DNA of 64,000 nucleotides from NCBI RefSeq assembly GCF_014174305.1, contig NZ_JABEQH010000002.1, positions 186,001-250,000 on the forward strand. Reading direction: 5' to 3'. Source of the DNA: Gluconacetobacter johannae (GTDB lineage: Bacteria > Pseudomonadota > Alphaproteobacteria > Acetobacterales > Acetobacteraceae). Shown here in pieces: positions 5,053 through 31,454 of the stretch. The notes under the pieces were generated by a model. That model was not told the origin of the DNA, searched no databases, and saw only the letters and a list, made by a program, of their open reading frames with translations. Position 1 is the first letter of the stretch; the number at the start of each line of letters is the position of its first letter. The position numbers and the translations under genes were made by a program.

Positions 5053-5080
5053 GGCAAGGGCCTAGGCCCTTGCCTTTATT
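5053..5080 (+). terminator. Palindromic terminator after zwf, part of a dispersed repeat
   Basis: A perfect 22-base palindrome spans 5053-5074 (9-bp stem, CTAG loop) and is followed by TTTATTT on the plus strand. This fits a rho-independent terminator for zwf. It sits between two convergent genes and may serve both, though the T-run is on the zwf side. The flanking bases match, inverted, the right-hand part of the repeat at 16.5 kb. Confidence 0.75.
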
Positions 5081-5624
5081 TGGCCGGGGTCGCGGCGTGC
5101 TGGTCGGACTGGCGGAACAGCGTGTCGGCCTGTTTCTTCTGGATGTCCGTGAAGCCGTTGTACAGCGTGCGGAACGCCATGTTCAGCGCCTGCAGATCCT
5201 GCGCGCGCTGGGTCACCAGGTCGGCATAGGATTGCATGTTGTCCGCGGCGCTCATGCTGGAGAGCCGGTCCCGGCGCTGGGCGATGGAGTCGCGGAAACG
5301 TTCGGCATTGTCGCGCATCAGTTGCGCGAAGGCCCCCCAGGGCTGCTCCTGCGCCGGCGTGATGCCCAGTTGCTGGTGCAGGGTCGCGATATGCGTCTCC
5401 ACCTGATCGGGGGTCTGGTCGTGGGGTGTATGCGCGGGGACCGATGACGCGGGCGCCGATGGCGCTGGGACCGGGGCCGGCGTGGCGGGAGCAGGCGCGG
5501 CGGCGGCCGGCGCAGGGGCCGGCGGGGTGGCGGAAGCCGGGGCAGGCGCGTCGGCCGCCGCCGCGAGGGCGGGCGACGAGAGCAGGGCGAGGGCGGCGAG
5601 GATCGGGAACCGGCGAACGGTCAT
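5076..5624 (-). CDS. Periplasmic LTXXQ/Spy-CpxP-like protein with Ala-Pro linker
   Basis: Probable periplasmic protein of the Spy/CpxP (LTXXQ) type, which in other bacteria acts as a small helical chaperone in envelope stress. From the ATG at 5624 it has a clear signal peptide (MTVRRFPILAALALLSSPALA), then about 45 residues of Ala-Pro-rich linker. A helical region of about 110 residues follows, containing VETHIATLHQQLGITPAQEQPW, the LTxxQ-like segment. An in-frame Met at 5654 would lengthen the N-terminus without improving the signal sequence. The family call is by motif and general shape, so function is inferred. The 3' end abuts the zwf terminator palindrome. Confidence 0.7.
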   Translation of the reverse strand: MTVRRFPILAALALLSSPALAAAADAPAPASATPPAPAPAAAAPAPATPAPVPAPSAPASSVPAHTPHDQTPDQVETHIATLHQQLGITPAQEQPWGAFAQLMRDNAERFRDSIAQRRDRLSSMSAADNMQSYADLVTQRAQDLQALNMAFRTLYNGFTDIQKKQADTLFRQSDQHAATPAK

Positions 5625-5681
5625 GAACAGGGCAACTCCCGTGATTCGGGTCAAAAAGGGGACGTGGGCGGCGGGGCCAGA

Positions 5682-6077
5682 TCAGTACGGCGGCGGCCCG
5701 TAGGACGCCTGCGGATAATAAGCCGGCGGCGGCGGCGGGGGTTCCGGCTGCGGCGGATAGTAGGCGCCGGGCGGCGGCGCGGCCTGCGCGGCCAGCGCCC
5801 CGCCCAGCAGCGCGCCGACCGCCAGGCCGGCCACGCCGGCGCCGACGGCCATGCCGACACCGGAACCGTGATGGTAATAGCCACCGCCGCCACCGCCCCA
5901 TCCGGGGCCGCGCCGGTTGTCATATCCCCGGTGGCCGTGGTCCCAGTTGCCGCGACCGCCGCCACGCCAGTCATGGCCGTCGGGTCGGGCCATGGCGGGC
6001 GCGGGCACGTTCGTCGCCGCGATCGTGCCGGTCAGGCACAGCGTCGCCAGGAAGAAAGAAAGGGGTCGAACCCGCAT
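5682..6077 (-). CDS. Secreted Gly/His/Tyr/Pro-rich protein with glycine-zipper segment
   Basis: Small exported protein of 131 residues, function unknown. It begins MRVRPLSFFLATLCLTGTIAA, a signal peptide ending near AMA. Next comes a tract rich in Gly, His, Arg and Trp (HDWRGGGRGNWDHGHRGYD), then a glycine-zipper-like hydrophobic stretch (GMAVGAGVAGLAVGALLGG), then a Pro/Tyr-rich tail ending YGPPPY. The start at 6077 is set by AAAGGAG just upstream. Similar short proteins with a glycine zipper are common in alphaproteobacterial envelopes, but nothing here shows a specific role. Confidence 0.75.
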   Translation of the reverse strand: MRVRPLSFFLATLCLTGTIAATNVPAPAMARPDGHDWRGGGRGNWDHGHRGYDNRRGPGWGGGGGGYYHHGSGVGMAVGAGVAGLAVGALLGGALAAQAAPPPGAYYPPQPEPPPPPPAYYPQASYGPPPY

Positions 6078-6167
6078 GAGGGGCTCCTTTATCCAGAAAA
6101 ATCTTGGCATTGCCCTATCGGCCGCGATCATGTCCGAATCACGGCCGCTTCGGGGCAGGTGCACAGA

Positions 6168-6815
6168 TCAGGCCGCGCGAGACAGTCGCTTGGCAAGCGC
6201 CGACAGGCGGTGGCGCCGCATCTCGCTGCGGGCCTTGGCGTCGTTTTCCATGTAGTTCAACTGGATGGTATAGCGCCGGCCGACATATTGCCGGTGGCCG
6301 TGCCAGGTCGTCGGGCCGTTGGGAAAGATCAGCAGCGTGCCGTCGACAGGCGGGATTTCGGCGACGTAATCCTCGACATCGTCCGGCCCGCGCAGCAGGC
6401 GCAGGCACCCTTCCTGCCGTGCCCAGGATTCGCGGGCCGGGTTCAGGTACAGCAGCACCGTCACCCGCTTGGCCACGGAATCGCAATGGATGCGGCCGTC
6501 CTTTTCGCGCGTGCGGCCGCGCAGGGTCAGCATGGTCGGCGCGTCGTCCAGGTCCAGGCCGAATTTGCGCGCGATGGCGTCGCGCAGGCGCGGCCCCTCC
6601 ATTTCCGCCACCAGACCGCGCACCAGTGGCGCCAGGGTCAGCGATCCGGGGGGGAACGACCCGCCGGACGACAGGTCCGGCATCGACGCCACCAGCGCCG
6701 CCAGATCGTCCGGCCCGACGAAATGCGGGACCACGACATGCGCGAACGGGTCGGTGCTGACGGCGGCGGCCTCCAGCGCGGCATAGTTGGGGTGGATCGA
6801 GGTGGGGACGGTCAT
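6168..6815 (-). CDS. 2-oxoglutarate/Fe(II)-dependent dioxygenase, putative
   Basis: Putative non-haem iron oxygenase of 215 residues. The double-stranded beta-helix metal triad is visible: HCD (His110, Asp112) and a distal His in TTWHGHRQYVGRRYTIQLNY (His172 or His174), with an Arg eight or so residues later (about 180) placed to hold 2-oxoglutarate. The segment RVTVLLYLNP is typical of prolyl-4-hydroxylase-like oxygenases. Substrate is unknown. The promoter region is shared with the divergent AFG1 gene and contains a 40-base near-perfect hairpin. Confidence 0.8.
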   Translation of the reverse strand: MTVPTSIHPNYAALEAAAVSTDPFAHVVVPHFVGPDDLAALVASMPDLSSGGSFPPGSLTLAPLVRGLVAEMEGPRLRDAIARKFGLDLDDAPTMLTLRGRTREKDGRIHCDSVAKRVTVLLYLNPARESWARQEGCLRLLRGPDDVEDYVAEIPPVDGTLLIFPNGPTTWHGHRQYVGRRYTIQLNYMENDAKARSEMRRHRLSALAKRLSRAA

Positions 6816-6856
6816 GGAACCTGCGCGGGCAGTTGGGCCAGGGCCCGAATGCTAGT

Positions 6857-6896
6857 CCCCGTTTGCCGGCGCGCCAAGGGGCGCCGGCAAACGGGG
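6857..6896. repeat. Near-perfect 40-base inverted repeat in a divergent promoter region
   Basis: Two 19-base arms (6857-6875 and 6878-6896), starting CCCCGTTTGCCGGCGCGCC, are inverted copies with a single mismatch and a 2-base spacer. They lie between the divergent starts of the 2OG oxygenase (6815) and the AFG1-type ATPase (7033). No T-run follows on either side and neither flank is a gene end, so an operator, a cruciform or a transcript-leader hairpin is more likely than a terminator. Confidence 0.8.
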
Positions 6897-7032
6897 ATCA
6901 TTGCGAAATACTTCCATTTTCGGTCGATCGGACGGGTCTCGCGTTCACCAGATGGAGAGCAGGCCCGTCACGACACGGTTTGGCGAGCGCATGCCCTTGC
7001 TGGCATCCGTTGCTGGCGCTATCGGCGTTGTT

Positions 7033-8235
7033 ATGGAAACCGTTCTTTCGTCCTTCGCCTCCGACCTGCATCTGCCGCCCGGAACGGGACCGCTCGCCGC
7101 GTATCGGGCACGGGTGGATGCGGGCCTGCTGGCCCCGGACCCCGAACAGGCCAAGGCCGCCGCGCGGCTGGACCGGCTGTGGCGCGAACTTCCGGGCTAT
7201 CATCCCGTGGTGCGGCAGGCCGCCCCGCCCCACGGCAGGCTGGGCGGCCTGCTGGGCGGGCTGAAGGCGCGGCTGGGCCTGCAGGGCCAGCCCAGCCCGG
7301 CGCCCCGGCCGCGCGGCGTCTACATGGTCGGGCAGGTCGGCCGCGGCAAGACGATGCTGATGGACCTGTTCTTCGAGCTGGCGCCGGTCGAGCACAAGAA
7401 ACGCGTGCATTTCCATCGTTTCATGCAGGACGTGCACCAGCGCCTGCACGACATGAAGCGCGCGCATCCCGAACTGACCGACCCGATTCCGCCGCTGGCC
7501 CACGCCATCGCGGACGAGGCCTGGCTGCTGTGCTTCGACGAATTCCAGGTGAACGACATCGCCGATGCGATGATCCTGGGCCGGCTGTTCGAATATCTGT
7601 TCGCCGAGGGCGTGGTCGTGGTCGCGACGTCGAACACCCAGCCGCAGGATCTGTTCCAGAACCGGCCGGGCGCCGACGCCTTCCGCCCCTTCATCGCGGT
7701 GATCCAGCGCGAGGTGGACACGGTGGTGCTCGATTCCCCGCGCGACTACCGGCGCGGCGGCATGCGGGGCATGACGACGTGGATCGTCCCCCCCGGCCCC
7801 GATGCGTCGCAGGAACTGGATTCGATCTTCATGCGCCTGGCGGACGGCGCGCCGGTACGCCCCGTGACGCTGGACATCATGGGCCGGTCGCTGGCGGTTC
7901 CGGTCGCCGCCGGTCCCGTCGCGCGCTTCAGCTTTCCCGCGCTGTGCGGCCGGGCGCTGGGGGCCGGCGATTACCTGGCGCTGGCCACGCGCTTTCCGGC
8001 GCTGATCCTGGACGACATTCCCCGCCTGGGCCCCGATAATTTCGACGTCGCCCGCCGCTTCATCGTGCTGGTGGACACCTTGTACGAACAGAAGGTGAAA
8101 CTGTTCGCCTCGGCCGAGGACCAGCCCGATGCGATCTACCAGCGCGGCGAAGGCGCGCAGGCGTTCGAGCGCACGGCCTCGCGCCTCGAGGAAATGCAGA
8201 GCGTCGCCTATCTCGACCTCCCGCACCTGTCCTGA
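7033..8235 (+). CDS. zapE: AFG1/ZapE-family P-loop ATPase
   Basis: AAA-like ATPase of the AFG1/ZapE family, linked in bacteria to cell division under stress and in mitochondria to protein quality control. The 400-residue product has Walker A GQVGRGKT (100-107), then the family-typical FHRFMQDVH, and Walker B LLCFDEFQV (165-173). SNTQPQDLFQNR and the C-terminal SVAYLDLPHLS region are also characteristic. The start is uncertain: the frame is open from 6901 with in-frame Met codons at 6952 and 6991, none with a strong ribosome site. The ATG at 7033 gives the normal family length. Confidence 0.88.
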   Translation: METVLSSFASDLHLPPGTGPLAAYRARVDAGLLAPDPEQAKAAARLDRLWRELPGYHPVVRQAAPPHGRLGGLLGGLKARLGLQGQPSPAPRPRGVYMVGQVGRGKTMLMDLFFELAPVEHKKRVHFHRFMQDVHQRLHDMKRAHPELTDPIPPLAHAIADEAWLLCFDEFQVNDIADAMILGRLFEYLFAEGVVVVATSNTQPQDLFQNRPGADAFRPFIAVIQREVDTVVLDSPRDYRRGGMRGMTTWIVPPGPDASQELDSIFMRLADGAPVRPVTLDIMGRSLAVPVAAGPVARFSFPALCGRALGAGDYLALATRFPALILDDIPRLGPDNFDVARRFIVLVDTLYEQKVKLFASAEDQPDAIYQRGEGAQAFERTASRLEEMQSVAYLDLPHLS

Positions 8236-8697
8236 GCGGAGGCGGCGCATCGGCGGCCCGGTCGGGGCGAAAATCATGCCGGCGGAATGCCAAGGCAAAA
8301 AAAACATGCAGAATATGCCTGCATATTCACCATTTGCCTTCGGCCGCGCCCGGGCGCGGTTCGGGTCGCGGCCGAACGTTCCCAATGGTCACGGCATCGT
8401 GACGCTTATGGCGTGGCTGTGACTGGCGGGGCGGTAGGCAAGTGGTGCGCTCTTTGCTTGGGTATGGGCGGTCCCGTTTTGCGGTCCGCGGGACGCGCCA
8501 TGGTGAAAACATAAAGGTGAGTATGCGCGTGGAGCAATCCTGACCGTGGCGAAAGACGGCGGCGGACCGCAAAAGGTGACGCTAGGGTTGAGAGCACAAC
8601 CGGTTTGTGTCCCGAATTCCGTCATGATCGGCGGCTACGGGGCGCGATCGGACAATGACGCGGCCAGCAAGGCCGTCAGTGAGGAGATGTCTTCAAG
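8236..8697. other. 462-bp non-coding region upstream of sucA
   Basis: No convincing gene on either strand. It contains an A-rich tract around 8297-8304, an exact 18-bp palindrome at 8311-8328, and a ribosome-binding GGAG shortly before the sucA ATG. It is long for a simple promoter and probably holds regulatory sites for the 2-oxoglutarate dehydrogenase operon. I could not place a confident -35/-10 pair. Confidence 0.6.
8311..8328. promoter_or_regulatory. Candidate operator: exact palindrome upstream of sucA
   Basis: GAATATGC-CT-GCATATTC is a perfect inverted repeat with 8-base arms and a 2-base spacer. It is AT-rich against a GC-rich background, about 370 bp upstream of the sucA start and directly after an A-tract. 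This shape fits a dimeric regulator site. The regulator is unknown. Confidence 0.5.
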
Positions 8698-11574
<2,877 letters not shown>

Positions 11575-11745
11575 ACGGGCGCCCCGGCCGGAGGTCCGGG
11601 GCACGGCAAGTCCGCCGGGACGGCCAGCGTGCCGTTCCGGCATCAGTCTGGTATGAGAATGCACAAGCCGGCAGACGACGGGCGAGGGACACGCGGTCCA
11701 TGCCCCGCACGCGGATCTGTCCGGCAGGGGGATTGGGAAGAGAAG

Positions 11746-13017
11746 ATGTCTGCCGAGATCAAGGTGCCGACTTTGGGCGAGAGCGTGACGACCGCCACCA
11801 TTGCGAAATGGCTGAAGAAGCCCGGCGAGGCGGTAACGGCCGATGAACCGGTCGTGGAACTGGAAACCGACAAGGTCAGCGTCGAGGTCGCAGCGCCCGA
11901 GGCCGGCGTGATGGGCCAGCAGCTGGTCGCCGAAGGCGACGAGGTCGAGGTCGGCACCGTGCTGGCGTCGGTCGAGGCCGGCAGCGGCGTGGCCAAGCCC
12001 GCCGCCGCGGCCCCCGCGCCCAGGAAGGCGGCCGAGGCCCCGAAGGCCCCCGCCGGCGTCCAGGCCCAGCCGACGACCAGCGGCCCGGTCGCCCGCCCGG
12101 CGACGCCGCCGTCCGACGTCGTGGCGCAGGGCGCGGCCCACGCGCCGATGCCGTCGGCGCAGAAGATGCTGGTCGAAAAGGGCCTGTCCCCGGCCCAGGT
12201 CGGCACCGGCACCGGCAAGGACGGCCGTATCACCAAGGGCGATGTCCTGTCCTTCCTGGCGCAGCCGCCCGCAGCCACCCCGGCCGCGGCCCCGGTCGCC
12301 CCGCGCACCGACGACCCGCGCGAGGAACGGGTGAAGATGACGCGCCTGCGCCGCACCATCGCCCGCCGCCTGAAGGAGGCGCAGAACACCGCCGCCCTGC
12401 TGACCACCTTCAACGAGGTGGACATGAGCGCGGCCAAGGCCCTGCGTGCGGAATACCGCGAAGCGTTCGAGAAGAAGCATAACGGCGTGAAGCTCGGCTT
12501 CATGTCGATCTTCGCCAAGGCGGCGATCGCGGCGTTGAAGGAATTTCCGGCGATCAATGCGGAAATCCACGGTGACGACATCATCTATCGCGAATTCGTC
12601 AATCTGGGCATCGCGGTCGGCGGCCCCAACGGCCTGGTCGTCCCGGTCATCCGCGACGCCGACACGCTCAGCTTCGCGGGCATCGAGAGCGCGATCGCCG
12701 GTTTCGGCAAGCGCGCGCGCGACGGGTCGCTGAAGCTGGACGAGCTGTCGGGCGGCACGTTCTCGATCACCAATGGCGGCATCTACGGGTCGCTGATGTC
12801 GACGCCGATCGTCAACGCCCCGCAGTCGGGCATCCTGGGCATGCATGCCATCCAGGATCGTCCGGTCGCCGTCGGCGGCCAGGTGGTGATCCGGCCCATG
12901 ATGTATATCGCCCTGACCTACGATCACCGCATCGTTGACGGCAAGGAAGCCGTCAGCTTCCTGGTGCGCGTCAAGCAGAACGTGGAAGATCCGCGTCGTC
13001 TGCTGCTCGAGGTCTGA
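11746..13017 (+). CDS. sucB: Dihydrolipoyllysine succinyltransferase, E2 component of OGDH
   Basis: Core acyltransferase of the 2-oxoglutarate dehydrogenase complex. The 423-residue protein has one lipoyl domain with the lipoylated Lys in ETDKVSVEV (Lys43), an Ala/Pro linker, a subunit-binding domain near 140-177 ([17 protein letters not shown]...[11 protein letters not shown]), and the catalytic domain ending in [15 protein letters not shown] with catalytic His394 and Asp398. The start at 11746 places IKVPTLGES directly after the N-terminus; the longer open frame from 11629 has no domain content. The lipoyl domain is closely similar to that at the N-terminus of the next gene, lpd. Confidence 0.97.
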
Positions 13018-13089
13018 TGCGCCGCGCCGGGCCGGGCGCCCTTGCCTGGCCCGCCGATCCATCTGACGCATCGAATGCAGGACATGAAT

Positions 13090-14832
13090 ATGACTATTGA
13101 AATCAAGGTGCCGACGCTTGGCGAAAGCGTGGCCACCGCGACGATCGGCAAGTGGCTGAAGCAGCCGGGCGACAGCGTTGCTGCCGATGAACCGGTCGTT
13201 GAACTGGAAACCGACAAGGTGAGCGTCGAGGTCGCGGCCCCCGCGGCCGGCACGCTGGGCGCCCACGCGGTGGCCGAAGGGGCCGAGGTCGAGGTCGGCG
13301 CCGTGCTGACCACGCTGACCGAAGGCGCCGCCGGCGCCGCCCCGGCCAAGCCCGCGCCGAAGGCGGCGGCCCCGGCTGCCCCCACGGCTGCTGCTCCGGC
13401 CCCCGCCGCTGCGGCGGCGGCGCCCGCCGTGGCCCCGCCTGCCGAAACCGATTACGACGTCATCGTCATCGGCGCCGGTCCCGGCGGCTATGTCTGCGCT
13501 ATCCGCGCGGCGCAGCTCGGCTTCAAGGTGGCCTGCGTGGAAAAGCGCGCGACCCTGGGCGGCACCTGCCTGAATGTCGGCTGCATCCCGTCCAAGGCGC
13601 TGCTGCAATCGTCCGAGAACTATCATGCCGCGACGCATGATTATGCCGGGCATGGCATCCTGATCGACGGCGTCAAGCTGGACCTGGCCCGCATGATGGC
13701 CCGCAAGGGCGAGGTGGTCGAGGCCAACGTCAAGGGCGTCGAGTTCCTGTTCAAGAAGAACAAGGTCACCTGGCTGAAGGGCACCGGCAAGATCGAAGGC
13801 ACCGGCCGGATCACCGTCGATGGCAAGCCGGTGACGGCCAAGCACATCGTCATCGCCAGCGGCAGCGACAGCGCCGGCCTGCCGGGGGTCGAGGTCGACG
13901 AGAAGACGATCGTGACCTCGACCGGCGCGCTGGAACTGTCGTCCGTGCCGAAGAAGCTGGTGGTGATCGGCGGCGGCGTGATCGGGCTGGAACTGGGCAG
14001 CGTCTGGCATCGCCTGGGCGCCGAGGTCACGGTGATCGAATATTGCGATCGCCTGGTGCCGGGAACGGATGACGAGATCGCCAAGCAGTTCCAGCGCATC
14101 CTGACCAGGCAGGGCCTGCAGATGAAGCTGGGCCAGAAGGTCACCAAGGCCGAGAAGACCGGCAAGGGCGTCATCCTGACGGTCGAACCCGCCGCCGGCG
14201 GCAAGGCCGAGACGCTGGAGGCCGACATCGTCCTGCTGGCCATCGGCCGCACGGCGGCCAGTGGCGGCATGGGCCTGGCCGAGGCCGGCGTCGCGCTGGA
14301 CAAGCGCGGCCGGATCGTCACCGACGCCCATTTCGCGACCAGCGTGCCCGGCATCTATGCCATCGGCGACGTGATCGCCGGCCCGATGCTGGCGCACAAG
14401 GCCGAGGACGAAGGCGTCGCGGTGGCGGAAATCCTGGCCGGCCAGGCCGGGCATGTGAATTATGACGCCATCCCCGGCGTGATCTACACATGGCCCGAGG
14501 TCGCGACCGTCGGACAAACCGAGGAAAATCTGAAAGACGCCGGCGTGGCCTACAAGGTCGGCAAGTTCCCCTTCATGGCCAACGGCCGCGCGCGCGCCAT
14601 GGGCATGACCGACGGGTTCGTGAAGGTTCTGGCCGACGCCACGACCGATCGCGTTCTGGGCGTGCACATCATCGGGCCGGGTGCGGGCGAACTGATCGCC
14701 GAGGCTACCCTGGCGATGGAATTCGGCGCGTCGTCGGAAGATGTCGCCCGGACCTGCCACGCTCACCCGACCCTGAGCGAAGCGGTGAAGGAAGCCGCCC
14801 TGGACGTGGAAAAGCGCGCGATCCACATCTGA
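13090..14832 (+). CDS. lpd: Dihydrolipoyl dehydrogenase (E3) with N-terminal lipoyl domain
   Basis: Flavoprotein that reoxidises dihydrolipoyl groups of the dehydrogenase complexes with NAD. The 580-residue product is longer than a plain E3. Residues 1-77 form a lipoyl domain with Lys43 in ETDKVSVEV, then an Ala/Pro linker to about 120, then the E3 core. The core shows FAD motif GAGPGG (128-133), redox disulfide GGTCLNVGC (Cys160, Cys165), and HAHPTLSE (catalytic His559, Glu564). The start at 13090 follows GCAGGA at good spacing; ATG codons at 13084 and 13075 are in frame and possible. The gap to sucB is 72 bp, so one operon is likely. Confidence 0.96.
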
Positions 14833-14844
14833 TACGGCCTGCCT

Positions 14845-14955
14845 CAGGGCGCTGCCCTGAACCCGCCAAAAGGCTTAGTCCTTTGGAAACCCATTCGTAT
14901 CCATGATGGGGGTCCAGGGCCTCAGGCCCTGGTGGGTTCGGGCAACGCCCGGCCT
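14845..14955. repeat. Composite hairpin repeat, copy after lpd
   Basis: Three adjacent hairpins: CAGGGC-GCT-GCCCTG at 14845-14859, an imperfect CCAAAAGG...CCTTTGG near 14866-14886, and CCAGGGCC-TCA-GGCCCTGG at 14914-14932, followed by GGGTTCGGGCAACGCCC. The order and the connecting words (AACCCGCCAAA, TTTGGAAACCCA, GGTGGGTTCGGGC) match the copy at 16.5 kb and, inverted, the copy at 31.4 kb. It probably terminates the suc-lpd transcript. It looks like a REP/BIME-type dispersed element. Confidence 0.75.
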
Positions 14956-15018
14956 GTCGGCGGGAACGCGGCCGCGCGTTCTGCGTCATGACAGAGGGCC
15001 AATCGGGGCGAGGGGCGC

Positions 15019-15924
15019 ATGCGGATTGTCTATCCGGTGGCGGGGGCCATCATGGCCGCCGGTCTGGGGGGCTGCGCGCCACCCGTTCACGCCGGATCGC
15101 CGGCCATGCCAGGGGGCGGGCCAGCACCTGGTCCCGTCGCCATCGCCTTGCCCGCCGAACAGAATCCCGCCATCGACATCCCACCGCTGCCATCGCTGGA
15201 TGACGACGCGGCACGGGCCGAGGCCGTCCGTCTGACGGCGGCGATGCAGCGCGACATTCCCCATTTCATGATCCCCCCACCCGACCGCGCGGCGGAGTGG
15301 GTCCGCCTGGCCCGGGACCAGCTTACGCGGGGGGATGCGATCGTCGATCGGGCACAGGTACTGATGGTCGTCGACCGCAACCCCCGTGTGCAGACGGTCT
15401 GCTTCATCCTGGCCCTGCCGGGGGAGGGGGCGTGGCAGGTGCTGGGCGGCACCCGCGTCTCGACCGGGCGGACAGGACGCAAATATTATTACCTCACCCC
15501 CACCGGCGTGTTCGTGAATTCGCCTGATCGCCTCGGCTATCGCGCGCTGGGTACCCGCAACGAAAACGGTATTCGCGGCATCGGCGCCAAAGGCATGCGG
15601 GTGTGGGACATGGGCTGGCAGTGGGCCGAGAAAGGCTGGCTGCCCAGTCGGGAAAGGGGGCAGATCCGGCTGGAAATCCATGCCACCGACCCGGATTTCC
15701 TGGAATCCCGCCTCGGCCACCCGGCATCCGAGGGCTGCGTGCGGATTCCCGCGGCGCTGAACGTCTTCATGGATCGTCACGGCCTGCTGGACGCGCTGTA
15801 CGAGCAGGCGGCCAGCTATGACGGCCGCTTCCGCGCGCTGCTGCCCCGTGGCCGCACGCCGACCCCGATTACCGGCGACAAGCTGGTGGTGGTCGATTCC
15901 GCACCCCAGGCCGGCAGCGGGTGA
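15019..15924 (+). CDS. L,D-transpeptidase-like lipoprotein
   Basis: Probable exported YkuD-type L,D-transpeptidase, which cross-links peptidoglycan or attaches proteins to it through an active-site Cys. The 301-residue product begins with a lipoprotein-like signal (AGAIMAAGLGGC, lipid Cys about 20). Its C-terminal half carries HATDP, then LGHPASEGCVRIP, giving His234 and nucleophile Cys240 in the HxxxxxGCxR arrangement of the family. The central region (KYYYLTPTGVFVN) fits the catalytic beta-sandwich. No separate LysM or peptidoglycan-binding domain is seen. Confidence 0.8.
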   Translation: MRIVYPVAGAIMAAGLGGCAPPVHAGSPAMPGGGPAPGPVAIALPAEQNPAIDIPPLPSLDDDAARAEAVRLTAAMQRDIPHFMIPPPDRAAEWVRLARDQLTRGDAIVDRAQVLMVVDRNPRVQTVCFILALPGEGAWQVLGGTRVSTGRTGRKYYYLTPTGVFVNSPDRLGYRALGTRNENGIRGIGAKGMRVWDMGWQWAEKGWLPSRERGQIRLEIHATDPDFLESRLGHPASEGCVRIPAALNVFMDRHGLLDALYEQAASYDGRFRALLPRGRTPTPITGDKLVVVDSAPQAGSG

Positions 15925-16006
15925 TCGGGCACCGCCCGATCTTTCGTTTCCCGGAACAATCCAGCCTTCGCTTCCCAAGCCCGTCCGCATCGCTCATGAT
16001 AATGTG

Positions 16007-16516
16007 ATGCGAAAGTTTGGACCGATCCTCTGCCTGACCCTGTCGGCCCTGCTGGCCGCCCCTGCCGTGCCGGGGTGGGCGGCTCCCCCGGATTCCGGCG
16101 ACCCGACCCCGGTCGGGGTGGCGGCGGCGATCCAGGCCCAGGGTGCGGCGCAGGCTATAGGAAATCTGAACGATTCCAACGACTTCGATACGGTCACCGC
16201 CGGGATCGCGGCGGCCGATCCGGCCTGGATGGCGCTGGTGCCTCAGATGGCGCCGGGCCTGGATTCCGACAGCGGCCCCCAGGTGACGACGGCGCTGGCG
16301 CTGGCGTTACCGCAGGACGCGCGGCTGGTGCTGCGGACGCTGGATGCCCGCTATCCGGCGCTGGACCCGCAATCGGTCTGCGCCCGTCCGTTCGGGCATG
16401 ACGAAGTGCCCGACATCAAGGGATATGCCCGCCGCGCCCGCGCCGCCCTGCGCCGCGTACGCGACAGCGGGCTTCGGAGCCTGCGCGACCGCTGCCTGTC
16501 GGTCTTGGGCCGGTGA
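16007..16516 (+). CDS. Secreted hypothetical protein
   Basis: Unrecognised 169-residue protein with a clear signal peptide (MRKFGPILCLTLSALLAAPAVPGWA). The mature part is mostly helical in look, Ala/Asp-rich, and ends in a basic region (ARRARAALRRVRDSGLRSLRDRCL). Two Cys residues (in SVCARPF and DRCLSVL) may form a disulfide in the periplasm. The start at 16007 is chosen because the signal peptide begins there; the ribosome site is weak and an in-frame GTG at 16004 is possible. It follows the L,D-transpeptidase gene by 82 bp on the same strand, so the two may be co-transcribed. Confidence 0.6.
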   Translation: MRKFGPILCLTLSALLAAPAVPGWAAPPDSGDPTPVGVAAAIQAQGAAQAIGNLNDSNDFDTVTAGIAAADPAWMALVPQMAPGLDSDSGPQVTTALALALPQDARLVLRTLDARYPALDPQSVCARPFGHDEVPDIKGYARRARAALRRVRDSGLRSLRDRCLSVLGR

Positions 16517-16522
16517 AGCGAA

Positions 16523-16640
16523 GGCAAGGGCGTTGCCCTTGACCCACCAAAGGGCATAGCCCTTTGGAAACCCAGGACTTTACAAAACGAATGGGATGCA
16601 AGGGCCGAGGCCCTTGCCGGGTTCGGGCAGAGCCCGATCC
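16523..16640. repeat. Composite hairpin repeat, most complete copy
   Basis: Four successive hairpins: CAAGGGC-GTT-GCCCTTG (16525-16541), CCAAAGGGC-ATA-GCCCTTTGG (16547-16567), GCAAGGGCC-GA-GGCCCTTGC (16598-16617), and CGGGC-AGA-GCCCG (16624-16636 region). It fills the space between two convergent gene ends (16516 and 16656). Related copies are at 5.05, 14.85 and 31.4 kb. The likely role is bidirectional termination by a mobile or REP-like repeat. Confidence 0.8.
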
Positions 16641-16655
16641 TGCCAGGTGCCGGGC

Positions 16656-17243
16656 TCAGTTTGCCCCGGCTGTCTTCTTCCACTCCCGCAGCGCCGCCAG
16701 GGTGCCGGTGATGTGCCCCGCCGGCGCCATGGCGCTGTAGGCGAACAGGATGTGCCCGTCGGGCGCGATGACGTAGGATGTCCGGCTGGCGTAACGGACC
16801 AGCGGCATCTTGGAATCATAGGCCGTCGCGATCTTGCCTGTGGCGTCGGAGGCGACCGCGAAACGGCTGCGGCATTCGCTGACCGAAAATTTGTCCAGCG
16901 TTTCGATCTTGTCCATCGACACGCCGATGACGGTGGCGCCCAGCGCCTTGAACGCGTCCATGGCGTCGGCGAAATCATGCGCTTCGATGGTGCAGCCCCG
17001 GGTGAAGGCGGCGGGGTAGAAATACAGCACCACCGGCCCGCGATGCAGGGCGTCGGCCAGCGTGAAATGGAATTCCTTGCCGCCCAGGCTGGCCTGGGTG
17101 TCGAACAGCGGCGCGGTGCTGCCGGTGGGCAGGGCGGCCCGTGCCGGGGTGAACGACGTCGCCGCCACGAAGGCCATCGCCATTGTGGCCGGCAGTGCCA
17201 TGCCCAGTCGGGTCCAGCGTCTCAGAAACGGGGAACGAAGCAT
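16656..17243 (-). CDS. Exported peroxiredoxin (AhpC/TSA, BCP-like)
   Basis: Thiol peroxidase probably acting in the periplasm. From the ATG at 17243 the 195-residue protein has a basic N-terminus (MLRSPFLRRWTR) and a hydrophobic segment to ATSFTPARA, consistent with a signal peptide. The peroxidase motif FYPAAFTRGCTIEAHDF holds the peroxidatic Cys84. The position five residues later, Cys in classic BCP, is His here, so the resolving thiol must be elsewhere (Cys124 in SVSECRSRF is a candidate) or the enzyme is 1-Cys. An upstream in-frame start at 17312 would overlap the preceding transglycosylase gene and is less likely. Confidence 0.85.
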   Translation of the reverse strand: MLRSPFLRRWTRLGMALPATMAMAFVAATSFTPARAALPTGSTAPLFDTQASLGGKEFHFTLADALHRGPVVLYFYPAAFTRGCTIEAHDFADAMDAFKALGATVIGVSMDKIETLDKFSVSECRSRFAVASDATGKIATAYDSKMPLVRYASRTSYVIAPDGHILFAYSAMAPAGHITGTLAALREWKKTAGAN

Positions 17244-26409: not shown

Positions 26410-26466
26410 GGTCGGCTCTCCCTTCTGGGCCGTCCGGCGGCGCGAGGCCGCCGGACGGGGTGTCGG

Positions 26467-27768
26467 TTAGTAGCGGTACAGGTCGTTCTTGAACGGCCCG
26501 TTGACCGGAACGCCGATGTACTCGGCCTGTTTCTGCGACATCTTCGTCAGTTCGGCGCCGACCTTGGCCAGGTGCAGGGCGGCGACCTTCTCGTCCAGAT
26601 GCTTGGGCAGGGTGTAGACCTTGCGCTCGTACTTGCCGGCGGGCGCGGTCCACAGCTCGATCTGCGCCAGGGTCTGGTTGGTGAAGGACGCCGACATCAC
26701 GAAGGACGGGTGGCCGGTCGCGTTGCCCAGGTTCACCAGGCGGCCTTCGGACAACACGATCAGGCGCTTGCCGTCGGGGAAGACGACCTCGTCGACCTGC
26801 GGCTTGATGTTGTCCCACGGGAAGTTGCGAAGGGCGTCGATCTGGATCTCGGAATCGAAATGGCCGATGTTGCAGACGATGGCGCGATGCTTCATCTCGC
26901 GCATGTGGTCGACGGTGATGATGTCCACATTGCCCGTGCAGGTGACGAAGATGTCGCCGCGCGGGGCGGCATTTTCCATCGTCACGACCTCGTAGCCTTC
27001 CATCGCGGCCTGCAGGGCGCAGATGGGGTCCGCCTCGGTCACCAGCACGCGGCAGCCGGCGTTACGCAGCGACGCCGCCGAGCCCTTGCCCACGTCGCCA
27101 TAGCCCGCGACGACGGCGATCTTGCCGGCCATCATCACGTCGGTGCCGCGACGGATCGCGTCCACCAGGCTTTCGCGGCAGCCGTACAGATTGTCGAATT
27201 TTGACTTGGTGACGCTGTCGTTGACGTTGATCGCCGGGACGGCCAGCGTGCCCTTCTTCGCCATTTCCCACAGGCGATGCACGCCGGTCGTCGTTTCCTC
27301 GGACAGGCCGCGCACGTCGGCCAGCATTTCGGGGTACTTGTCGTGCATCAGCACGGTCAGGTCGCCGCCGTCATCGAGGATCATGTTCGGCGTCCAGCCG
27401 TCCGGCCCCTTCACGGTCGCCTCGATGCACCACCAGAACTCCTCCTCCGTCAGGCCCTTCCAGGCGAAGACGGGCACGCCCGTGGCGGCGATGGCGGCGG
27501 CGGCGTGGTCCTGGGTCGAGAAGATGTTGCACGACGACCAGCGGACGGTGGCGCCCAGCGCGGTCAGCGTCTCGATCAGCACGGCGGTCTGGATGGTCAT
27601 GTGCAGGCAGCCGGCGATCCGCGCGCCCGCCAGCGGCTTGCTGGCGCCGAATTCCTCGCGCAGCGCCATCAGGCCGGGCATCTCGCCCTCGGCGATCGAG
27701 ATTTCCTTGCGGCCCCATTCCGCGAGGGAGATGTCCTTGACCTTGTAGTCGGTGCTGCTGGCGGTCAT
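26467..27768 (-). CDS. ahcY: Adenosylhomocysteinase
   Basis: NAD-dependent enzyme that hydrolyses S-adenosylhomocysteine to homocysteine and adenosine, keeping methylation cycles running. The 433-residue product has the substrate-domain motif [15 protein letters not shown], the catalytic region [20 protein letters not shown], the NAD loop [12 protein letters not shown], and the C-terminal end KNDLYRY, which is invariant in the family. The ATG at 27768 is preferred to one at 27786. The leader is only about 60 bp to the next upstream gene, with no room for an SAH riboswitch. Confidence 0.97.
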
Positions 27769-27828
27769 GTGCTGTCCTGTCTGCAAATGAATCTGGCCCG
27801 GGGATATAGCCGCTTGGCGGCCCGGGGG

Positions 27829-28851
27829 CTAGGCCGGCTGGCCGGCGACGGCCTCGGCACGGCGCAGGACGCGCAGGAAATTGCCGCCCCAGATCGCCGC
27901 GATCTGGGCGGGGTCATAGCCGCGCCGCACCAGTTCCGCCGTCAGGGCGGGCGATTGCGCCGCGTTGCGCCAGCCCTCGATGCTGCCGCCGCCGTCGAAA
28001 TCCGATGAAATGCCGACATGCCGCACGCCGATGCGCCGTGCCACGTAATCGACATGGTCCACGTAATCGGCCACCGTGACGGGGCGTTGCTGGCGGATGT
28101 CGCGCGGGCGCAGGAAGGCGTCGACGGCGGTGATGTGGATCACCCCGTCGCAATCGCGCAGTGCGTCGAGCTGTTCGTCATCAAGGTTGCGCGGGTGGTC
28201 GCACAGCGCGCGGACGCAGGAATGGGTGGCCAGGACCGGGCTGCGCGACAGGCGCAGGGCCTGCATCATGGTGCTGCGCGCGGTATGCGACACGTCGACC
28301 ATCAGGCCCAGCCGGTTCATCTCGGCGATGGCCTCGCGCCCCAGGCCCGACAGGCCGTCATGCCGCGCGGCGCTGTCGCCCAGCGCCGCCGACGGCCGGG
28401 CGGAATCGGCCAGCGCGTTGTGCCCGTTATGGGTCAGCGTCATGTAGCGTGCGCCCCTGGCGCGGAACTGCGCCAGCAGCGACAGGTCCTCGCCCATCGC
28501 GTAGCCGTTCTCGACCGCCGGGACGATGGCCGTCACGCCGTCGCGGCGCGCGGCCTCGATCTGGTCGGCCAGGGGGCAGATCCGCGCCATGCCGGTGTCG
28601 GCGGCCCGCCCGATCGCGTCCAGCATCTCCAGCGCCTGCCGCCCCACCGCCGCGTGGCGGACGTCGTCCGTCGGGCCCTGCCCGACATAGGCGACCAGGC
28701 AGGCCGCCGAGATGCCGCCGCGCCGCAGCTTCGGCAGATCGACATGCCGCGTGTCCGTGTCCTGCCCGATGTCGCCCTGGTCGGGCCAGGGAATGTCGAT
28801 ATGCGTATCGACCGTCAGGAGGGAATGATGAAGGGCGTCGGAATCCGTCAT
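27829..28851 (-). CDS. Membrane dipeptidase (M19 renal dipeptidase family)
   Basis: Zinc dipeptidase of 340 residues. The metal ligands are visible in order: VDTHIDIPW (His17, Asp19), VENGYAMGEDL (Glu), VSHTARSTM (His) and ATHSCVRAL (His), followed by GISSDFDGGG near the C-terminus. This order is specific to the M19 family, which cleaves dipeptides, including D-amino acid-containing ones, and some beta-lactams. No signal peptide is seen, so a cytoplasmic location is likely. The start at 28851 is uncertain; an in-frame Met at 28887 would add 12 residues. Confidence 0.9.
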   Translation of the reverse strand: MTDSDALHHSLLTVDTHIDIPWPDQGDIGQDTDTRHVDLPKLRRGGISAACLVAYVGQGPTDDVRHAAVGRQALEMLDAIGRAADTGMARICPLADQIEAARRDGVTAIVPAVENGYAMGEDLSLLAQFRARGARYMTLTHNGHNALADSARPSAALGDSAARHDGLSGLGREAIAEMNRLGLMVDVSHTARSTMMQALRLSRSPVLATHSCVRALCDHPRNLDDEQLDALRDCDGVIHITAVDAFLRPRDIRQQRPVTVADYVDHVDYVARRIGVRHVGISSDFDGGGSIEGWRNAAQSPALTAELVRRGYDPAQIAAIWGGNFLRVLRRAEAVAGQPA

Positions 28852-28961
28852 GCCGTCACTGTAGTCCCAATCCGCGCGCCCTGCCATGCCGCCGATGGCC
28901 CGCCGGCCGGGTGCGATGCGCCCGGGTGGGCGCATCGCACCGGACCTGTCGCGGGGTCGGT

Positions 28962-29456
28962 TCAGTGCTGGGTCTCGGCATTGATCGGGATCTGCCGCCC
29001 GTGGACGGCCTCGGCGCTGCGGGGCAGCGTCACCGTCAGCACGCCGTTGTTGAAGCGGGCGCTGGCCTCGTCCTCCTTCACGTCGTGGGGCAGGGTGAAG
29101 CGCCGCTCGAACCGGCCATAGCGCCGCTCGCTGTAGCCGCTGGCCTTGTCCTCGCTTTCCTGCCGGCGTTCGCCGCACAGGCACAGCACGCCGTTATCGA
29201 CGCTCAGCGTGATGTCCTTCTCGGTCAGGCCGGGCAGTTCGGCGGTCACGCGGATTTCGTTGTCGGTCTCGGCGACCTCGACGCTGGGCCAGGTGCCGCC
29301 GCGTGGGCCGCGCGGGTCCCAGGTCTGCATGAAATCGTCGAACAGCCGGTCGATTTCCCGGTGGAGGCTGAGAAACGGGCCGCCCTGCCGGTCCTGGATC
29401 GGGGCCGGGGCCCTGGACTCGTCCCGCCCCCAGGGCATGAGATTACGCATAGCCAT
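28962..29456 (-). CDS. Hsp20/alpha-crystallin small heat-shock protein
   Basis: ATP-independent holdase chaperone of 164 residues. The N-terminal region has LHREIDRLFDDFMQTWD, followed by the alpha-crystallin domain (about 55-150) with PSVEVAETDNEIRVTAELPGL, the GVLCLCGERR strand, and the closing motif FNNGVLTVTLPRS. The tail ends INAETQH, close to the usual I-x-I/V region (GRQIPIN). The ATG follows GAGGGGAACGATCCA. About 150 bp upstream is a sequence matching the sigma-32 consensus, so heat induction is likely. Confidence 0.93.
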   Translation of the reverse strand: MAMRNLMPWGRDESRAPAPIQDRQGGPFLSLHREIDRLFDDFMQTWDPRGPRGGTWPSVEVAETDNEIRVTAELPGLTEKDITLSVDNGVLCLCGERRQESEDKASGYSERRYGRFERRFTLPHDVKEDEASARFNNGVLTVTLPRSAEAVHGRQIPINAETQH

Positions 29457-29602
29457 TGGATCGTTCCCCTCGGTTAGGGCCGGGACCAGCGACCGCCGCC
29501 AGGGTGGTCGCCGACGTCCAGGCCCGTCGGCCTGTCGGGGCAGGAAGCGATCAGAGAGCGCGCCCCCTGTCCGCCGGGCCGCAGTGGCGGTCCGGTTTCA
29601 GG

Positions 29603-29631
29603 AAGCTGGGGTGGGAATGAAGCGTGTCAAG
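29603..29631 (-). promoter_or_regulatory. Sigma-32 (RpoH)-like heat-shock promoter for hsp20
   Basis: Read on the minus strand: CTTGACA (29631-29625), a 13-base spacer, then CCCCAGCTT (29611-29603). The RpoH consensus is CTTGAAA, 11-14 bases, CCCCATNT. Position and direction fit transcription of hsp20, leaving a leader of roughly 140 nt. The leader contains a GC-rich stem (GCGACC...GGTCGC), but I see no clear ROSE-type anti-Shine-Dalgarno. Confidence 0.65.
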
Positions 29632-29747
29632 AGGCGGGGTTTTTCCTTTCCCCCGACTGTCGCCGGCATGATTTCGTTTATTCTGGAAGCGTAATATGAC
29701 ATCGTGCGGCGACGGAAGCCCCCGGGGAACCGAGCGATGGATCAGCA

Positions 29748-30674
29748 ATGACAGACACACGCGATACGCCCTTCGCGGACGGCGCGGCCTATATCGACGG
29801 CGCGTTCATGCCGGTGCGCGACGCGCGCATTCCGATCACCGACTGGGGCTACCGGCGGTCGGATGTCACCTATGACGTGGTCGGCGTCTGGAACGGCAGT
29901 TTCTTCAGGCTGGACGATCACATCGCGCGGTTTCGCCGCTCCATGCAGGCCCTGCGCCTGGACCCCGTCGAGGACGACGCGCGGATCGGGGCCATCCTCA
30001 ACACATGTGTCCGCCTCAGCGGACTGCGGAACGCCTATGTCGCCATGGATTGCCTGCGCGGGCGGCCGCTGCCGGGCCAGCGTTTTCATCCGGCGTCCTG
30101 CCGCAACTACATCGCGGCCTTCGCCATTCCGTGGGTCTGGGTCATTTCGCCCGAGGTCCAGGCGCGCGGCGCGCATCTGATTATTGCGTCCCCCCTGCGA
30201 ATCCCCGACCGGTCGGTGGACCCGACCGTCAAGAATTTCCATTGGGGCGACCTGACGCAGGGATTGTTCGAGGCCGGGGATCGGGGGGCCGATACCTGCG
30301 TGCTGCTGGATGCCGACGGCCATGTCACCGAGGGCGCGGGGTTCAACGTCTTCGCCGTGATCGCCGGGGCGGTGGTGACGCCCGACCGGGGCGCGCTGGA
30401 AGGGATCACGCGCGCGTCGGTCGCCGAACTGTGCGGCGACCTGGGCCTGGAGTACTGCGAACGGCCGGTGACGGCGCAGGAACTGCGCGGCGCGGAGGAA
30501 ATCTTCCTCTCCACCACCGCCGGCGGAATCATGCCGGTATCGCGTATCGACGACATCGTGCTGAGTGACGACCGGCCGGGGCCGGTCTCGATGCGGCTGC
30601 GCGACCTGTTCTGGGCGAAGCGCGCGCAAGGCTGGCACGCGACCCCGGTCGATTACGGCGACGCGGCGCCCTGA
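29748..30674 (+). CDS. Class IV (BCAT/D-AAT/R-transaminase-like) PLP aminotransferase
   Basis: PLP-dependent fold-type IV aminotransferase of 308 residues. The catalytic Lys is in DPTVKNFHWGDL (Lys162) and the cofactor Glu in VTEGAGFNVF (Glu195). The N-terminal stretch SDVTYDVVGVWNGSFFRLDDHIARF closely resembles the (R)-selective amine transaminase/D-amino acid transaminase branch rather than canonical branched-chain aminotransferases. It has no biosynthetic neighbours, so the substrate cannot be assigned. Divergent from hsp20. Confidence 0.85.
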   Translation: MTDTRDTPFADGAAYIDGAFMPVRDARIPITDWGYRRSDVTYDVVGVWNGSFFRLDDHIARFRRSMQALRLDPVEDDARIGAILNTCVRLSGLRNAYVAMDCLRGRPLPGQRFHPASCRNYIAAFAIPWVWVISPEVQARGAHLIIASPLRIPDRSVDPTVKNFHWGDLTQGLFEAGDRGADTCVLLDADGHVTEGAGFNVFAVIAGAVVTPDRGALEGITRASVAELCGDLGLEYCERPVTAQELRGAEEIFLSTTAGGIMPVSRIDDIVLSDDRPGPVSMRLRDLFWAKRAQGWHATPVDYGDAAP

Positions 30675-30777
30675 GGCGGCCGGCCCAGGTGGTCTGGCGG
30701 AAATCGGACAACCGGCTCTGTCCGTCAGGCCGCAATGTCCTAGGATCGCCGGGATTCCCTTTTCCGGAGCCGCTTCC

Positions 30778-31377
30778 GTGTCCGACTGCCTGCCGCGCCG
30801 CCTGTCCCCCGTCACCCTGACCGGGACACATGTCCAGCTTGTTCCGCTGTCGCCCGCCCATCATGACGGGCTGGTCGAGGCCACACGGGACGGGTCGCTG
30901 TGGGAGCTGTGGTTCACGAGCGTGCCCGACCCCGACGGCATGGCGGCGGAAATCGCCCGGCGTCTGCGCCTGGCGGACGTGGGCACGATGCTGCCCTTCA
31001 CCGTCGTCAGCCTGCCCGACCGGCGCATCGTCGGCATGACCACCTTCATGAATATCGACATCGCGGGGCCGCGCGTGGAAATCGGCTCCACCTGGTACGC
31101 TCGCGCGGTGCAGCGCACGGCCCTGAATACCGAGGCCAAGCTGCTGCTGCTGGGCCATGCGTTCGACCATCTGGACTGCCTGGCCGTCGAACTGCGGACC
31201 CATGTCCTGAACCAGCGCAGCCGCCGCGCCATCGAACGCATCGGCGCCCGGCTGGACGGCATTCTGCGCCGTCATACACGGGCCCAGGACGGCACGGTGC
31301 GCGATACCTGCGTGTACAGCATCACCGCGCCGGACTGGCCGGCGGTGCGTTCGCACCTGCGGTCGCTGCTGGCCTGA
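30778..31377 (+). CDS. GNAT-family N-acetyltransferase (RimJ/RimL-like)
   Basis: Acetyl-CoA-dependent acetyltransferase of 199 residues. LTGTHVQLVPLSPAHHDGLVEA and the C-terminal ELRTHVLNQRSRRAIERIGARLDG match the RimJ/RimL-type GNAT group, the latter holding the usual NxxSRxAxE-like helix. A GTG start at 30778 follows CCGGAG; an ATG start is not available in frame near the conserved N-terminus. Acceptor substrate unknown. It follows the transaminase by about 100 bp on the same strand. Confidence 0.85.
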   Translation: MSDCLPRRLSPVTLTGTHVQLVPLSPAHHDGLVEATRDGSLWELWFTSVPDPDGMAAEIARRLRLADVGTMLPFTVVSLPDRRIVGMTTFMNIDIAGPRVEIGSTWYARAVQRTALNTEAKLLLLGHAFDHLDCLAVELRTHVLNQRSRRAIERIGARLDGILRRHTRAQDGTVRDTCVYSITAPDWPAVRSHLRSLLA

Positions 31378-31402
31378 GGCCCCGGACCCAGATCATAAAA
31401 CG

Positions 31403-31454
31403 ACTGGGTTTCCAAAGGGCGATGCCCTTTGGCGGGTTTCAGGGCAGCGCCCTG
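31403..31454. repeat. Composite hairpin repeat, copy between convergent genes
   Basis: Two hairpins, CCAAAGGGC-GAT-GCCCTTTGG (31412-31432) and CAGGGC-AGC-GCCCTG (31440-31454), joined by CGGGTTT and preceded by ACTGGGTTT. This is the inverted form of the left half of the copies at 14.85 and 16.5 kb. It lies between the ends of a plus-strand and a minus-strand gene and probably terminates both. Confidence 0.75.

What the first reader, a model, noticed from the sequence alone, without database searches (positions are those of the whole stretch)
5053..31454. A dispersed composite hairpin repeat marks four gene ends
Related multi-hairpin elements occur at 5053-5074 (inverted right part), 14845-14955, 16523-16640 (fullest) and 31403-31454 (inverted left part). 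They share the core hairpins CCAAAGGGC-GCCCTTTGG, CAGGGC-GCCCTG/CAAGGGC-GCCCTTG and GGCAAGGGCC-GGCCCTTGCC, joined by words such as TTTGGAAACCCA and GGGTTCGGGC. Three sit between convergent genes and one after an operon. Their modular order and both orientations suggest a mobile REP/BIME-like family reused as bidirectional terminators.
Basis: seen in the sequence. Interest (0 to 1): 0.7.

Follow-up and report, generated by a model that had tools for sequence, protein, structure and literature searches.

The report
Interchangeable hairpin repeats at gene ends
Many relatives of the acetic acid bacteria carry copies of a short DNA repeat that folds into four linked hairpins and tends to sit just after the ends of genes; copies are often swapped, flipped, shortened or lost between related species, which points to a mobile repeat that may shape where messages end.

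Summary
All four copies are real, and the genome (a Gluconacetobacter relative) has 145 non-overlapping matches to a model of the element, 119 of them strong. It is ~118 nt: four hairpins, with an ACCC/GGGT stem closing over the middle. It lies just past stop codons (strong tandem copies: median 11 nt) and is depleted in divergent, promoter-bearing spacers. All 14 genus genomes searched have it, 85 of 249 sampled family genomes and, in sparse class-wide draws, one genus outside the family. Best copies from 13 genera keep the helices by compensatory Watson-Crick changes with little G-U, as if both strands must fold. Between two sister species, of 38 shared sites 9 hold another type or orientation, 6 a shortened copy, 5 none. 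It is not a classical REP: no GTAG/CGTC tag, and a REP-type transposase in 0 of 14 genomes. Some copies ride in longer elements with terminal repeats; one such set shares its ends with an IS4-family transposon found inside a hairpin of the repeat. What spreads the bare core is unknown. A transcript-end role is inferred: U-tracts are rare. No Rfam family matches. New variant of a known kind.

The parts
5030..5075 (-). Site 1: internally deleted copy, inverted (hairpin 4 at about 5034-5048 plus fused hairpin 3/1 at about 5052-5075)
   Evidence: (R1 5032-5098 -, E 6e-6) and 40: full inverted copies at the same site in G001, G002 and G010; same short form in G003; no core copy at this site in G011 or G013
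14840..14954 (+). Site 2: full type B copy
   Evidence: 93.9 bits; same type in G003 and an inverted type A copy without hairpin 1 in G011
16521..16639 (+). Site 3: full type A copy (hairpins 1-4 and closing stem)
   Evidence: 141.4 bits; type B at the same site in G003, type A in G011, none in G004, G005 and G013
31404..31459 (-). Site 4: left part of a type B copy, inverted (hairpins 2 and 1)
   Evidence: R1 31345-31459 -, E 1e-8, right part not conserved
16525..16541 (+). Hairpin 1 (CAAGGGC-GTT-GCCCTTG) of the full copy
   Evidence: 97.7% of cells paired in 19 copies from 13 genera
16547..16567 (+). Hairpin 2 (CCAAAGGGC-ATA-GCCCTTTGG)
   Evidence: 97.1% of cells paired
16598..16617 (+). Hairpin 3 (GCAAGGGCC-GA-GGCCCTTGC)
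   Evidence: 97.0% of cells paired, 5 of 7 pairs with changes on both sides
16623..16637 (+). Hairpin 4 (TCGGGC-AGA-GCCCGA)
   Evidence: 98.9% of cells paired (5 pairs counted)

Best explanation
These are copies of a lineage-specific, dispersed, structured DNA repeat of Acetobacteraceae. The unit is about 118 nt: hairpin 1, a short closing stem (ACCC/GGGT) around hairpin 2, a weakly paired middle and hairpin 3, then hairpin 4. It amplifies within each genome, so copies in a lineage share its own version, and it is found mostly a few bases past stop codons. There it can fold on either strand and, by inference, forms a barrier in the 3' end of messages arriving from either side (protecting, processing or ending them). 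Shown here: copy number, architecture, compensatory change, position, exchange and loss between sister species, and longer forms that look like transposon derivatives. Inferred: the transcript-end role. Unknown: what spreads the bare core.
For: 145 non-overlapping model matches in 3.63 Mb. All 14 genus genomes searched, 9-145 matches each; 85 of 249 family genomes, own genus included, and 49 of 102 genera. On an alignment not fitted to the structure (19 copies, 13 genera) 96.0% of cells pair and 75 cells change on both sides against 26.8 in shuffles; RNAalifold finds five of the six helices on its own, all but the weak middle one. Outside the middle helix: 74 two-sided Watson-Crick changes, 3 G-U, 8 A-C and 7 other mismatches, as expected if both strands must fold. 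Spacers of at least 100 nt with a copy: convergent 40/52, tandem 45/115, divergent 5/59 (Fisher p 1.5e-9). Of copies with 55 bits or more, tandem ones lie a median 11 nt from the upstream stop and 132 nt from the next start, 29 of 33 nearer the stop. Sister-species comparison (my grouping): of 38 spacers 18 same, 6 shortened, 9 other type or orientation, 5 absent.
Against: No transcript data. U-tracts are rare (9 of 101 copies). The family copies were picked as best hits of a model that holds this structure, so the paired share and the scarcity of G-U are partly selection; in 103 copies of the own genome imperfect pairs are common (121 G-U, 85 A-C, 142 other, against 383 two-sided changes). 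No significant RNA-strand bias (tandem copies: 62 G-U versus 49 A-C in the transcript). 19 of 105 examined copies overlap a called gene by over 25 nt, 8 of 81 among the stronger (home-made gene caller). Stretches were chosen because they hold copies, and the element lengthens its own spacer. Of five core-less spacers folded, only two carry another hairpin better than shuffles (G011 site 1 z -3.0, G004 site 2 z -3.5; the others -1.5, 0.3, 0.0), so replacement by another terminator is not general.
Confidence: 0.55

Rival explanations
1. A selfish hairpin element with no host role. It inserts into, or survives only in, spacers past gene ends because insertion in genes and promoters is lethal or costly. 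The structure is kept because the mobilising enzyme needs it.
For: Strong depletion in divergent spacers, decay and truncation of many copies, lineage-specific versions, swaps and losses, longer forms with terminal repeats and target duplications, no RNA-strand bias, three of five core-less spacers without a strong hairpin.
Against: Stronger copies sit within a few bases of stop codons (median 11 nt in tandem spacers, 4 nt from the nearer stop in convergent ones), tighter than mere tolerance needs. No mobilising enzyme for the bare core was found.
Confidence: 0.31
2. A DNA-level device at convergent gene ends: cruciform or protein-binding sites (for gyrase or a nucleoid protein) that absorb supercoils.
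For: Dyad symmetry kept on both strands in the best copies, enrichment between convergent genes, DNA folding far better than shuffles (z -5.1 and -4.0 for the two full window copies).
Against: No binding motif was looked for; tandem spacers also hold many copies (45 of 115); many relatives have few copies or none found.
Confidence: 0.1
3. Classical REP/BIME elements moved by a REP-associated tyrosine transposase (RAYT).
For: Palindromic, mostly extragenic, high copy, mosaic; 7 of 8 close pairs of hits are inverted.
Against: Y1_Tnp (PF01797) found in 0 of 14 genus genomes although all carry the repeat; the same search rings in 5 of 14 control genomes. No GTAG or CGTC tag: present in 5 of 80 and 8 of 80 of the best-scoring aligned rows, at scattered positions.
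Confidence: 0.02
4. A conventional non-coding RNA or cis-regulatory RNA family with a ligand or target.
For: Conserved multi-helix structure with covariation.
Against: High copy number, both orientations, gene-end position, no widely shared neighbour gene in the loci compared, little G-U use, no Rfam match.
Confidence: 0.02

Closest known systems
REP / BIME repeats (GTAG and CGTC families, Di Nocera et al. 2013, PMC3733652; passages read, parts of the abstract among them)
   Same: Palindromic, dispersed, mostly extragenic, between convergent and same-direction genes, often downstream of genes, inverted pairs, mosaic.
   Different: Unit is a fixed four-hairpin array of ~118 nt instead of a 20-40 bp palindrome; no GTAG/CGTC tag; no RAYT found in the genus. 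The paper says CGTC repeats are missing in Acetobacteraceae.
Rhizobium-specific intergenic mosaic elements (RIME; Osteras et al. 1995, seen only as cited in passages of PMC2573895)
   Same: Alphaproteobacterial intergenic mosaic repeats described as having conserved sequence and secondary structure and unknown function.
   Different: Sequences not compared here. R1 and R2 found the present element in only one genus outside Acetobacteraceae among the class genomes sampled, with few candidates scored per genome.
Miniature inverted-repeat transposable elements (MITEs)
   Same: The long B form (~190 bp) has terminal repeats like those of an IS4-family IS in the same genome, and an 11-bp duplication in 2 of 4 copies with both ends; the long C form (roughly 160-185 bp) has terminal repeats and 3-bp TNA duplications in 3 of 4 readable copies.
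   Different: The bare type A core has no convincing terminal repeat or duplication, and the core occurs in genera where these carriers were not seen.
Insertion sequences that target hairpins or terminators (REP-targeting IS, Tobes and Pareja 2006, PMC1525189, abstract read; IS1272/TnSha1, PMC4923244, passages read)
   Same: Here an IS4-family IS and its derivatives sit in near-palindromic hairpins, and an IS110-family IS splits hairpin 4 at site 1 in G004 (same insertion length and ends in G005). IS1272 enters terminators in both orientations without duplication, a pattern like the A-type swaps.
   Different: Those papers describe whole IS entering hairpins; here the hairpin array itself is the repeat and is also carried inside some of the elements.

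Membership tests
REP (GTAG/CGTC) | GTAG or CGTC tetranucleotide at one end of the palindrome | tested here: not met
   GTAG in 5 of 80 and CGTC in 8 of 80 of the best-scoring aligned rows, scattered; 1 of 19 each in the family alignment
REP (GTAG) | Associated RAYT / Y1 transposase | tested here: not met
   PF01797: 0 in own genome, 0 of 14 genus genomes; rings in 5 of 14 control genomes. Not searched in the rest of the family
REP (GTAG/CGTC) | Extragenic, favouring convergent and same-direction spacers | tested here: met
   19 of 105 copies overlap a called gene by over 25 nt
REP (GTAG/CGTC) | Unit of 20-40 bp | tested here: not met
   Unit is ~118 nt with four hairpins conserved in order
MITE (long B form) | Terminal repeats shared with an autonomous transposon | tested here: met
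   ends like CATARGCGCGAARGT shared with an IS4-family IS, L114 1557-2887; 4 of the 10 copies aligned have both ends
MITE (long B form) | Target site duplication | tested here: met
   GTGCGCTGCCC at C32:22549 and GGGCCCAGGCC at C2:4112; the IS has GGGCAAAGTCC. The other two both-ended copies, C25:24856 and C32:12259, show no matching duplication
MITE (type A core) | Terminal repeats and target site duplication | tested here: inconclusive
   weak GAAGG/CCTTC ends, no duplication seen by eye; few clean empty sites
Intrinsic terminator | GC-rich hairpin followed by a U-tract | tested here: not met
   none in the two elements in 14500-17000; 9 of 101 copies have 5 or more T within 8 nt of a GCCC stem end
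Functional transcript-end element | RNA 3' ends map to it | not testable with these tools
   No transcript data held
Rfam families | Score above gathering threshold | tested here: not met
   0 matches in the window; best over the site 3 element 17.2 bits against a gathering score of 58.6
RIME | Sequence or structure match to RIME | not tested
   No RIME sequence was fetched

The most novel reading that the evidence does not exclude
A set of interchangeable gene-end cassettes: one conserved four-hairpin chassis, selected to fold on both DNA strands, that has been carried by more than one unrelated transposase and is swapped or inverted in place at the same gene ends, so that terminator-like modules circulate among genes of a whole bacterial family.
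Probability: 0.25. Interest if true: 0.75.

Novelty: new variant of a known kind. Interest (0 to 1): 0.6.

Why it matters
It describes an abundant structured repeat, absent from Rfam, found in about a third of the sampled genomes and half of the sampled genera of a bacterial family, that rewrites the ends of genes between close species. It gives a test system for two open questions: how REP-like repeats spread where no RAYT is found, and whether such repeats set mRNA 3' ends. The scarcity of G-U pairs in the best copies is a simple sign to test for selection on both strands.

Tried and rejected
REP/RAYT: rejected for this genus. Rfam family: none. Plasmid or phage element: no blastn match in either collection with one 141-base query; two IMG/VR contigs match a degenerate pattern. 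A common neighbour gene as mobiliser: an all-against-all blastp of 954 ORFs (shadow frames included) from 80 short loci gave only seven small groups, the largest of three distinct own-genome loci once duplicate loci are merged, and a few groups linking the own genome with a single other genome; their functions were not looked up. The IS4-family transposase as general mobiliser: intact only in G000, with a broken relative in G002, among 14 genomes. Its end pattern matches exactly only in G000 among five genomes scanned (10 exact, 4 with one mismatch); one-mismatch matches number 1 in G003 (reversed-pattern control 1 and 1), 0 in G009, 2 in G011 and 3 in G013 (control 0), which I take as chance. 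So it explains at most the long B form. An autonomous partner for the long C form: not found in the fetched sequence. RNA-strand bias as proof of an RNA role: not significant. Clean empty sites for type A: few and not precise.

Rows dropped: in the family alignment A3 I left out three of 22 printed copies (L159, L170, L175), which have long insertions or rearranged third hairpins, and two second copies from the same loci; L174, from the own genus, is among the 19 kept with the two window copies. Gene context covers 105 of 145 copies. The 41 matched G000/G003 sites are 38 spacers because three hold two G000 hits. They were chosen for having a copy in G000, so gains and losses cannot be compared. 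Of the eight core-less spacers seen I folded five; two of the other three are G005 twins of G004, and G013 site 2 was not folded. My first gene-caller training was misled by antisense frames and was redone.

An earlier count said '18+ genera' for the covariation alignment; the right figure is 13. After the fold check I lowered the main confidence from 0.60 to 0.55 and raised the parasite rival from 0.27 to 0.31.

Literature: the listings of searches showed no paper on this repeat; 80 and 100 matched far more papers than the 10-12 listed, and subscription journals are mostly not held. PMC8040213 (passages) was read for palindromic structured RNAs and has no Acetobacter mention.
Full report
What is there. 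The four places in the finding carry related multi-hairpin elements. I aligned 15 copies (A1) and built a covariance model with six helices (R1). In the window it finds the four stated places; the next separate site has E 0.087. The copy at 5 kb is larger than reported and includes hairpin 4. Two of the four copies were in the model's alignment; the other two are independent hits at E 1e-8 and 6e-6.

Genome census. The window is part of contig 2 of a 3.63-Mb genome. One 141-base query gives 53 BLAST matches, with only 40 of 180 candidates scored. R1 gives 150 matches at E<=1 with 150 of 3285 candidates scored, which reduce to 145 non-overlapping ones, 119 of them with 40 bits or more. The cap means the true number may be higher. 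Eight neighbouring pairs lie within 600 bases of each other or overlap, seven of them inverted.

Who has it. An exact pattern scan of named genomes hits only Gluconacetobacter azotocaptans LMG 21311, whose contigs match genome G003 by length. All 14 genomes of the genus searched have matches, from 9 to 145 each at E<=1e-3. In the family 85 of 249 genomes (six of the own genus included) and 49 of 102 genera match at E<=1e-6, with only 14 candidates scored per genome. A draw at order level showed only members of the same family among the rows listed: 49 of 150 matched. At class level 2 of 190 matched with R1, the own genome and G465. With the broader model R2 4 of 385 matched: the own genome, one family member and two genomes, G465 and G562, of one genus in another family. 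G465's copies, four of which I read, show the same order of hairpins; two of them went into R2. Few candidates were scored per genome, so absences are weak.

Architecture. Nineteen copies from 13 genera were aligned without regard to structure (A3). The proposed pairs hold in 96.0% of cells; 75 cells change on both sides against a shuffled mean of 26.8, and sliding the partner by one to three columns destroys the signal. Two weaker measures also exceed most shuffles: pairs with a two-sided change (12 against 9.2, reached by 3 of 500) and further pair types (24 against 20.6, reached by 21 of 500). RNAalifold independently predicts hairpins 1 to 4 and the closing ACCC/GGGT stem, but not the weak middle helix, which is paired in 80% of cells. 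In the other helices there are 74 two-sided Watson-Crick changes, 3 G-U cells, 8 A-C cells and 7 other mismatches. One RNA strand under selection would tolerate G-U, so this fits a structure needed on both strands: as DNA, or as RNA made from either side. A caution: these copies are best hits of a model that holds the structure. In 103 copies of the own genome imperfect pairs are common (121 G-U, 85 A-C, 142 other, 383 two-sided changes), so single copies decay; imperfect pairs in tandem settings are 62 G-U against 49 A-C in the transcript, not a significant bias. The full window copies fold far better than shuffles as RNA or DNA.

Position. I wrote a simple gene caller and examined 105 of 145 copies. 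Of spacers of at least 100 nt in the fetched stretches, 40 of 52 convergent, 45 of 115 tandem and 5 of 59 divergent ones hold a copy (Fisher p 1.5e-9 for divergent against the rest; with 150 nt as the limit p is 5e-7). The stretches were chosen around copies and the element lengthens its own spacer, so only the contrast between classes should be trusted. 19 of 105 copies overlap a called gene by more than 25 nt, 8 of 81 with 55 bits or more. Among the 72 remaining stronger copies with two called neighbours, 35 are convergent, 33 tandem and 4 divergent. In tandem spacers the median distance is 11 nt to the upstream stop and 132 nt to the next start, with 29 of 33 nearer the stop; in convergent spacers the nearer stop is a median 4 nt away. 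Orientation is mixed: 19 with and 14 against the gene in tandem, 16 plus and 19 minus in convergent.

Turnover. Stretches syntenic with the window were taken from 12 genus genomes. Site 1 could be compared in all 12: full inverted copies in G001, G002 and G010; the other orientation in G009; the short form in G003; a copy split by an IS in G004 and G005; a right part only in G006 and G007; a rearranged pair of hairpins in G008; no core in G011 and G013. Sites 2 and 3 could be compared in five. Site 2 holds type B in the own genome and G003, an inverted type A without hairpin 1 in G011, and no core in G004, G005 and G013. Site 3 holds type A in the own genome and G011 but type B in G003, and none in G004, G005 and G013. 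Across 41 matched sites in G003, which are 38 spacers, I count 18 with the same type and orientation, 6 with a shortened copy, 9 with another type or orientation, and 5 without it. The grouping was by eye from the scores. Of five core-less spacers folded, two carry another hairpin that beats shuffles (site 1 in G011, site 2 in G004) and three do not.

Mobile longer forms. Ten aligned copies belong to a ~190-bp form with ends like CATARGCGCGAARGT; four have both ends. Similar ends flank a 1331-bp IS in the own genome whose 357-aa transposase is IS4 family. The IS sits in a hairpin 1 and is flanked by GGGCAAAGTCC on both sides. Two of the four both-ended copies show 11-bp near-palindromic duplications; the other two do not and look recombined. 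Ten copies group with another long form with ends TACCAAC and, in three of the four I could read, a TNA duplication. In G004 an IS110-family transposase gene lies in an insertion that splits hairpin 4 of the site 1 element, and G005 has an insertion of the same length with the same ends. So the core is both cargo and target of unrelated transposases. None of these explains the bare core in all 14 genomes: the IS4 transposase is intact in the own genome only, exact matches to its ends are seen there only among five genomes, and no Y1 transposase was found in the genus.

How it most likely works. The element amplifies in each lineage by an unknown route. Copies persist where hairpins past a stop codon do no harm or some good, and exchange with other copies by recombination or re-insertion. 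When transcribed from either side the hairpins should form a barrier at the message's 3' end. That last step is inference: U-tracts are rare (9 of 101 copies) and no transcript data exist here. The published behaviour of IS1272, which enters terminators in both orientations without duplication (PMC4923244, passages read), is a lead for how type A could replace hairpins in place.

Comparison with known kinds. It works like REP/BIME repeats but fails their tag, unit-size and transposase tests (PMC3733652, passages read). Rfam has no match. IS that target REP are established (PMC1525189, abstract read). RIME is the nearest alphaproteobacterial precedent by description (PMC2573895, passages read) and was not compared by sequence. 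The G. oxydans transcriptome paper (PMC5756330, passages read) has no occurrence of 'palindrom', 'repeat' or 'hairpin' in its main text.

Noticed in passing
L114:1557-2887 (G000 contig 4, about 167568-168898): An intact IS4-family insertion sequence, the only match to its transposase in this genome, with an 11-bp target duplication inside a hairpin of one of these repeats.
   Followed up: yes
L067:3553-4539 (G004); G005 has an insertion of the same length at the same site: An IS110-family transposase gene in an insertion that splits hairpin 4 of the site 1 element.
   Followed up: partly
L157:1223-1620 and 2202-2459; L171:1501-1756: Head-to-tail arrays of the element with a period of about 136-139 bases in genomes of genus g73.
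   Followed up: no
L178-L181 (G465), L185, L188, L191 (G562): The same four-hairpin architecture in one genus outside Acetobacteraceae (read in G465; model hits only in G562), suggesting transfer or a wider family.
   Followed up: partly
L182:12062-12093 and L183:3023-3054: Two contigs of the viral collection match the element's pattern; whether they are phage or host DNA was not checked.
   Followed up: no
window 15923-15941: A conventional intrinsic-terminator-like hairpin with a T-rich tail between sites 2 and 3.
   Followed up: no
window 8635-14826, minus strand: A 2063-aa open frame antisense to a gene run; almost certainly spurious in this GC-rich genome, and it misled my first gene caller.
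   Followed up: yes
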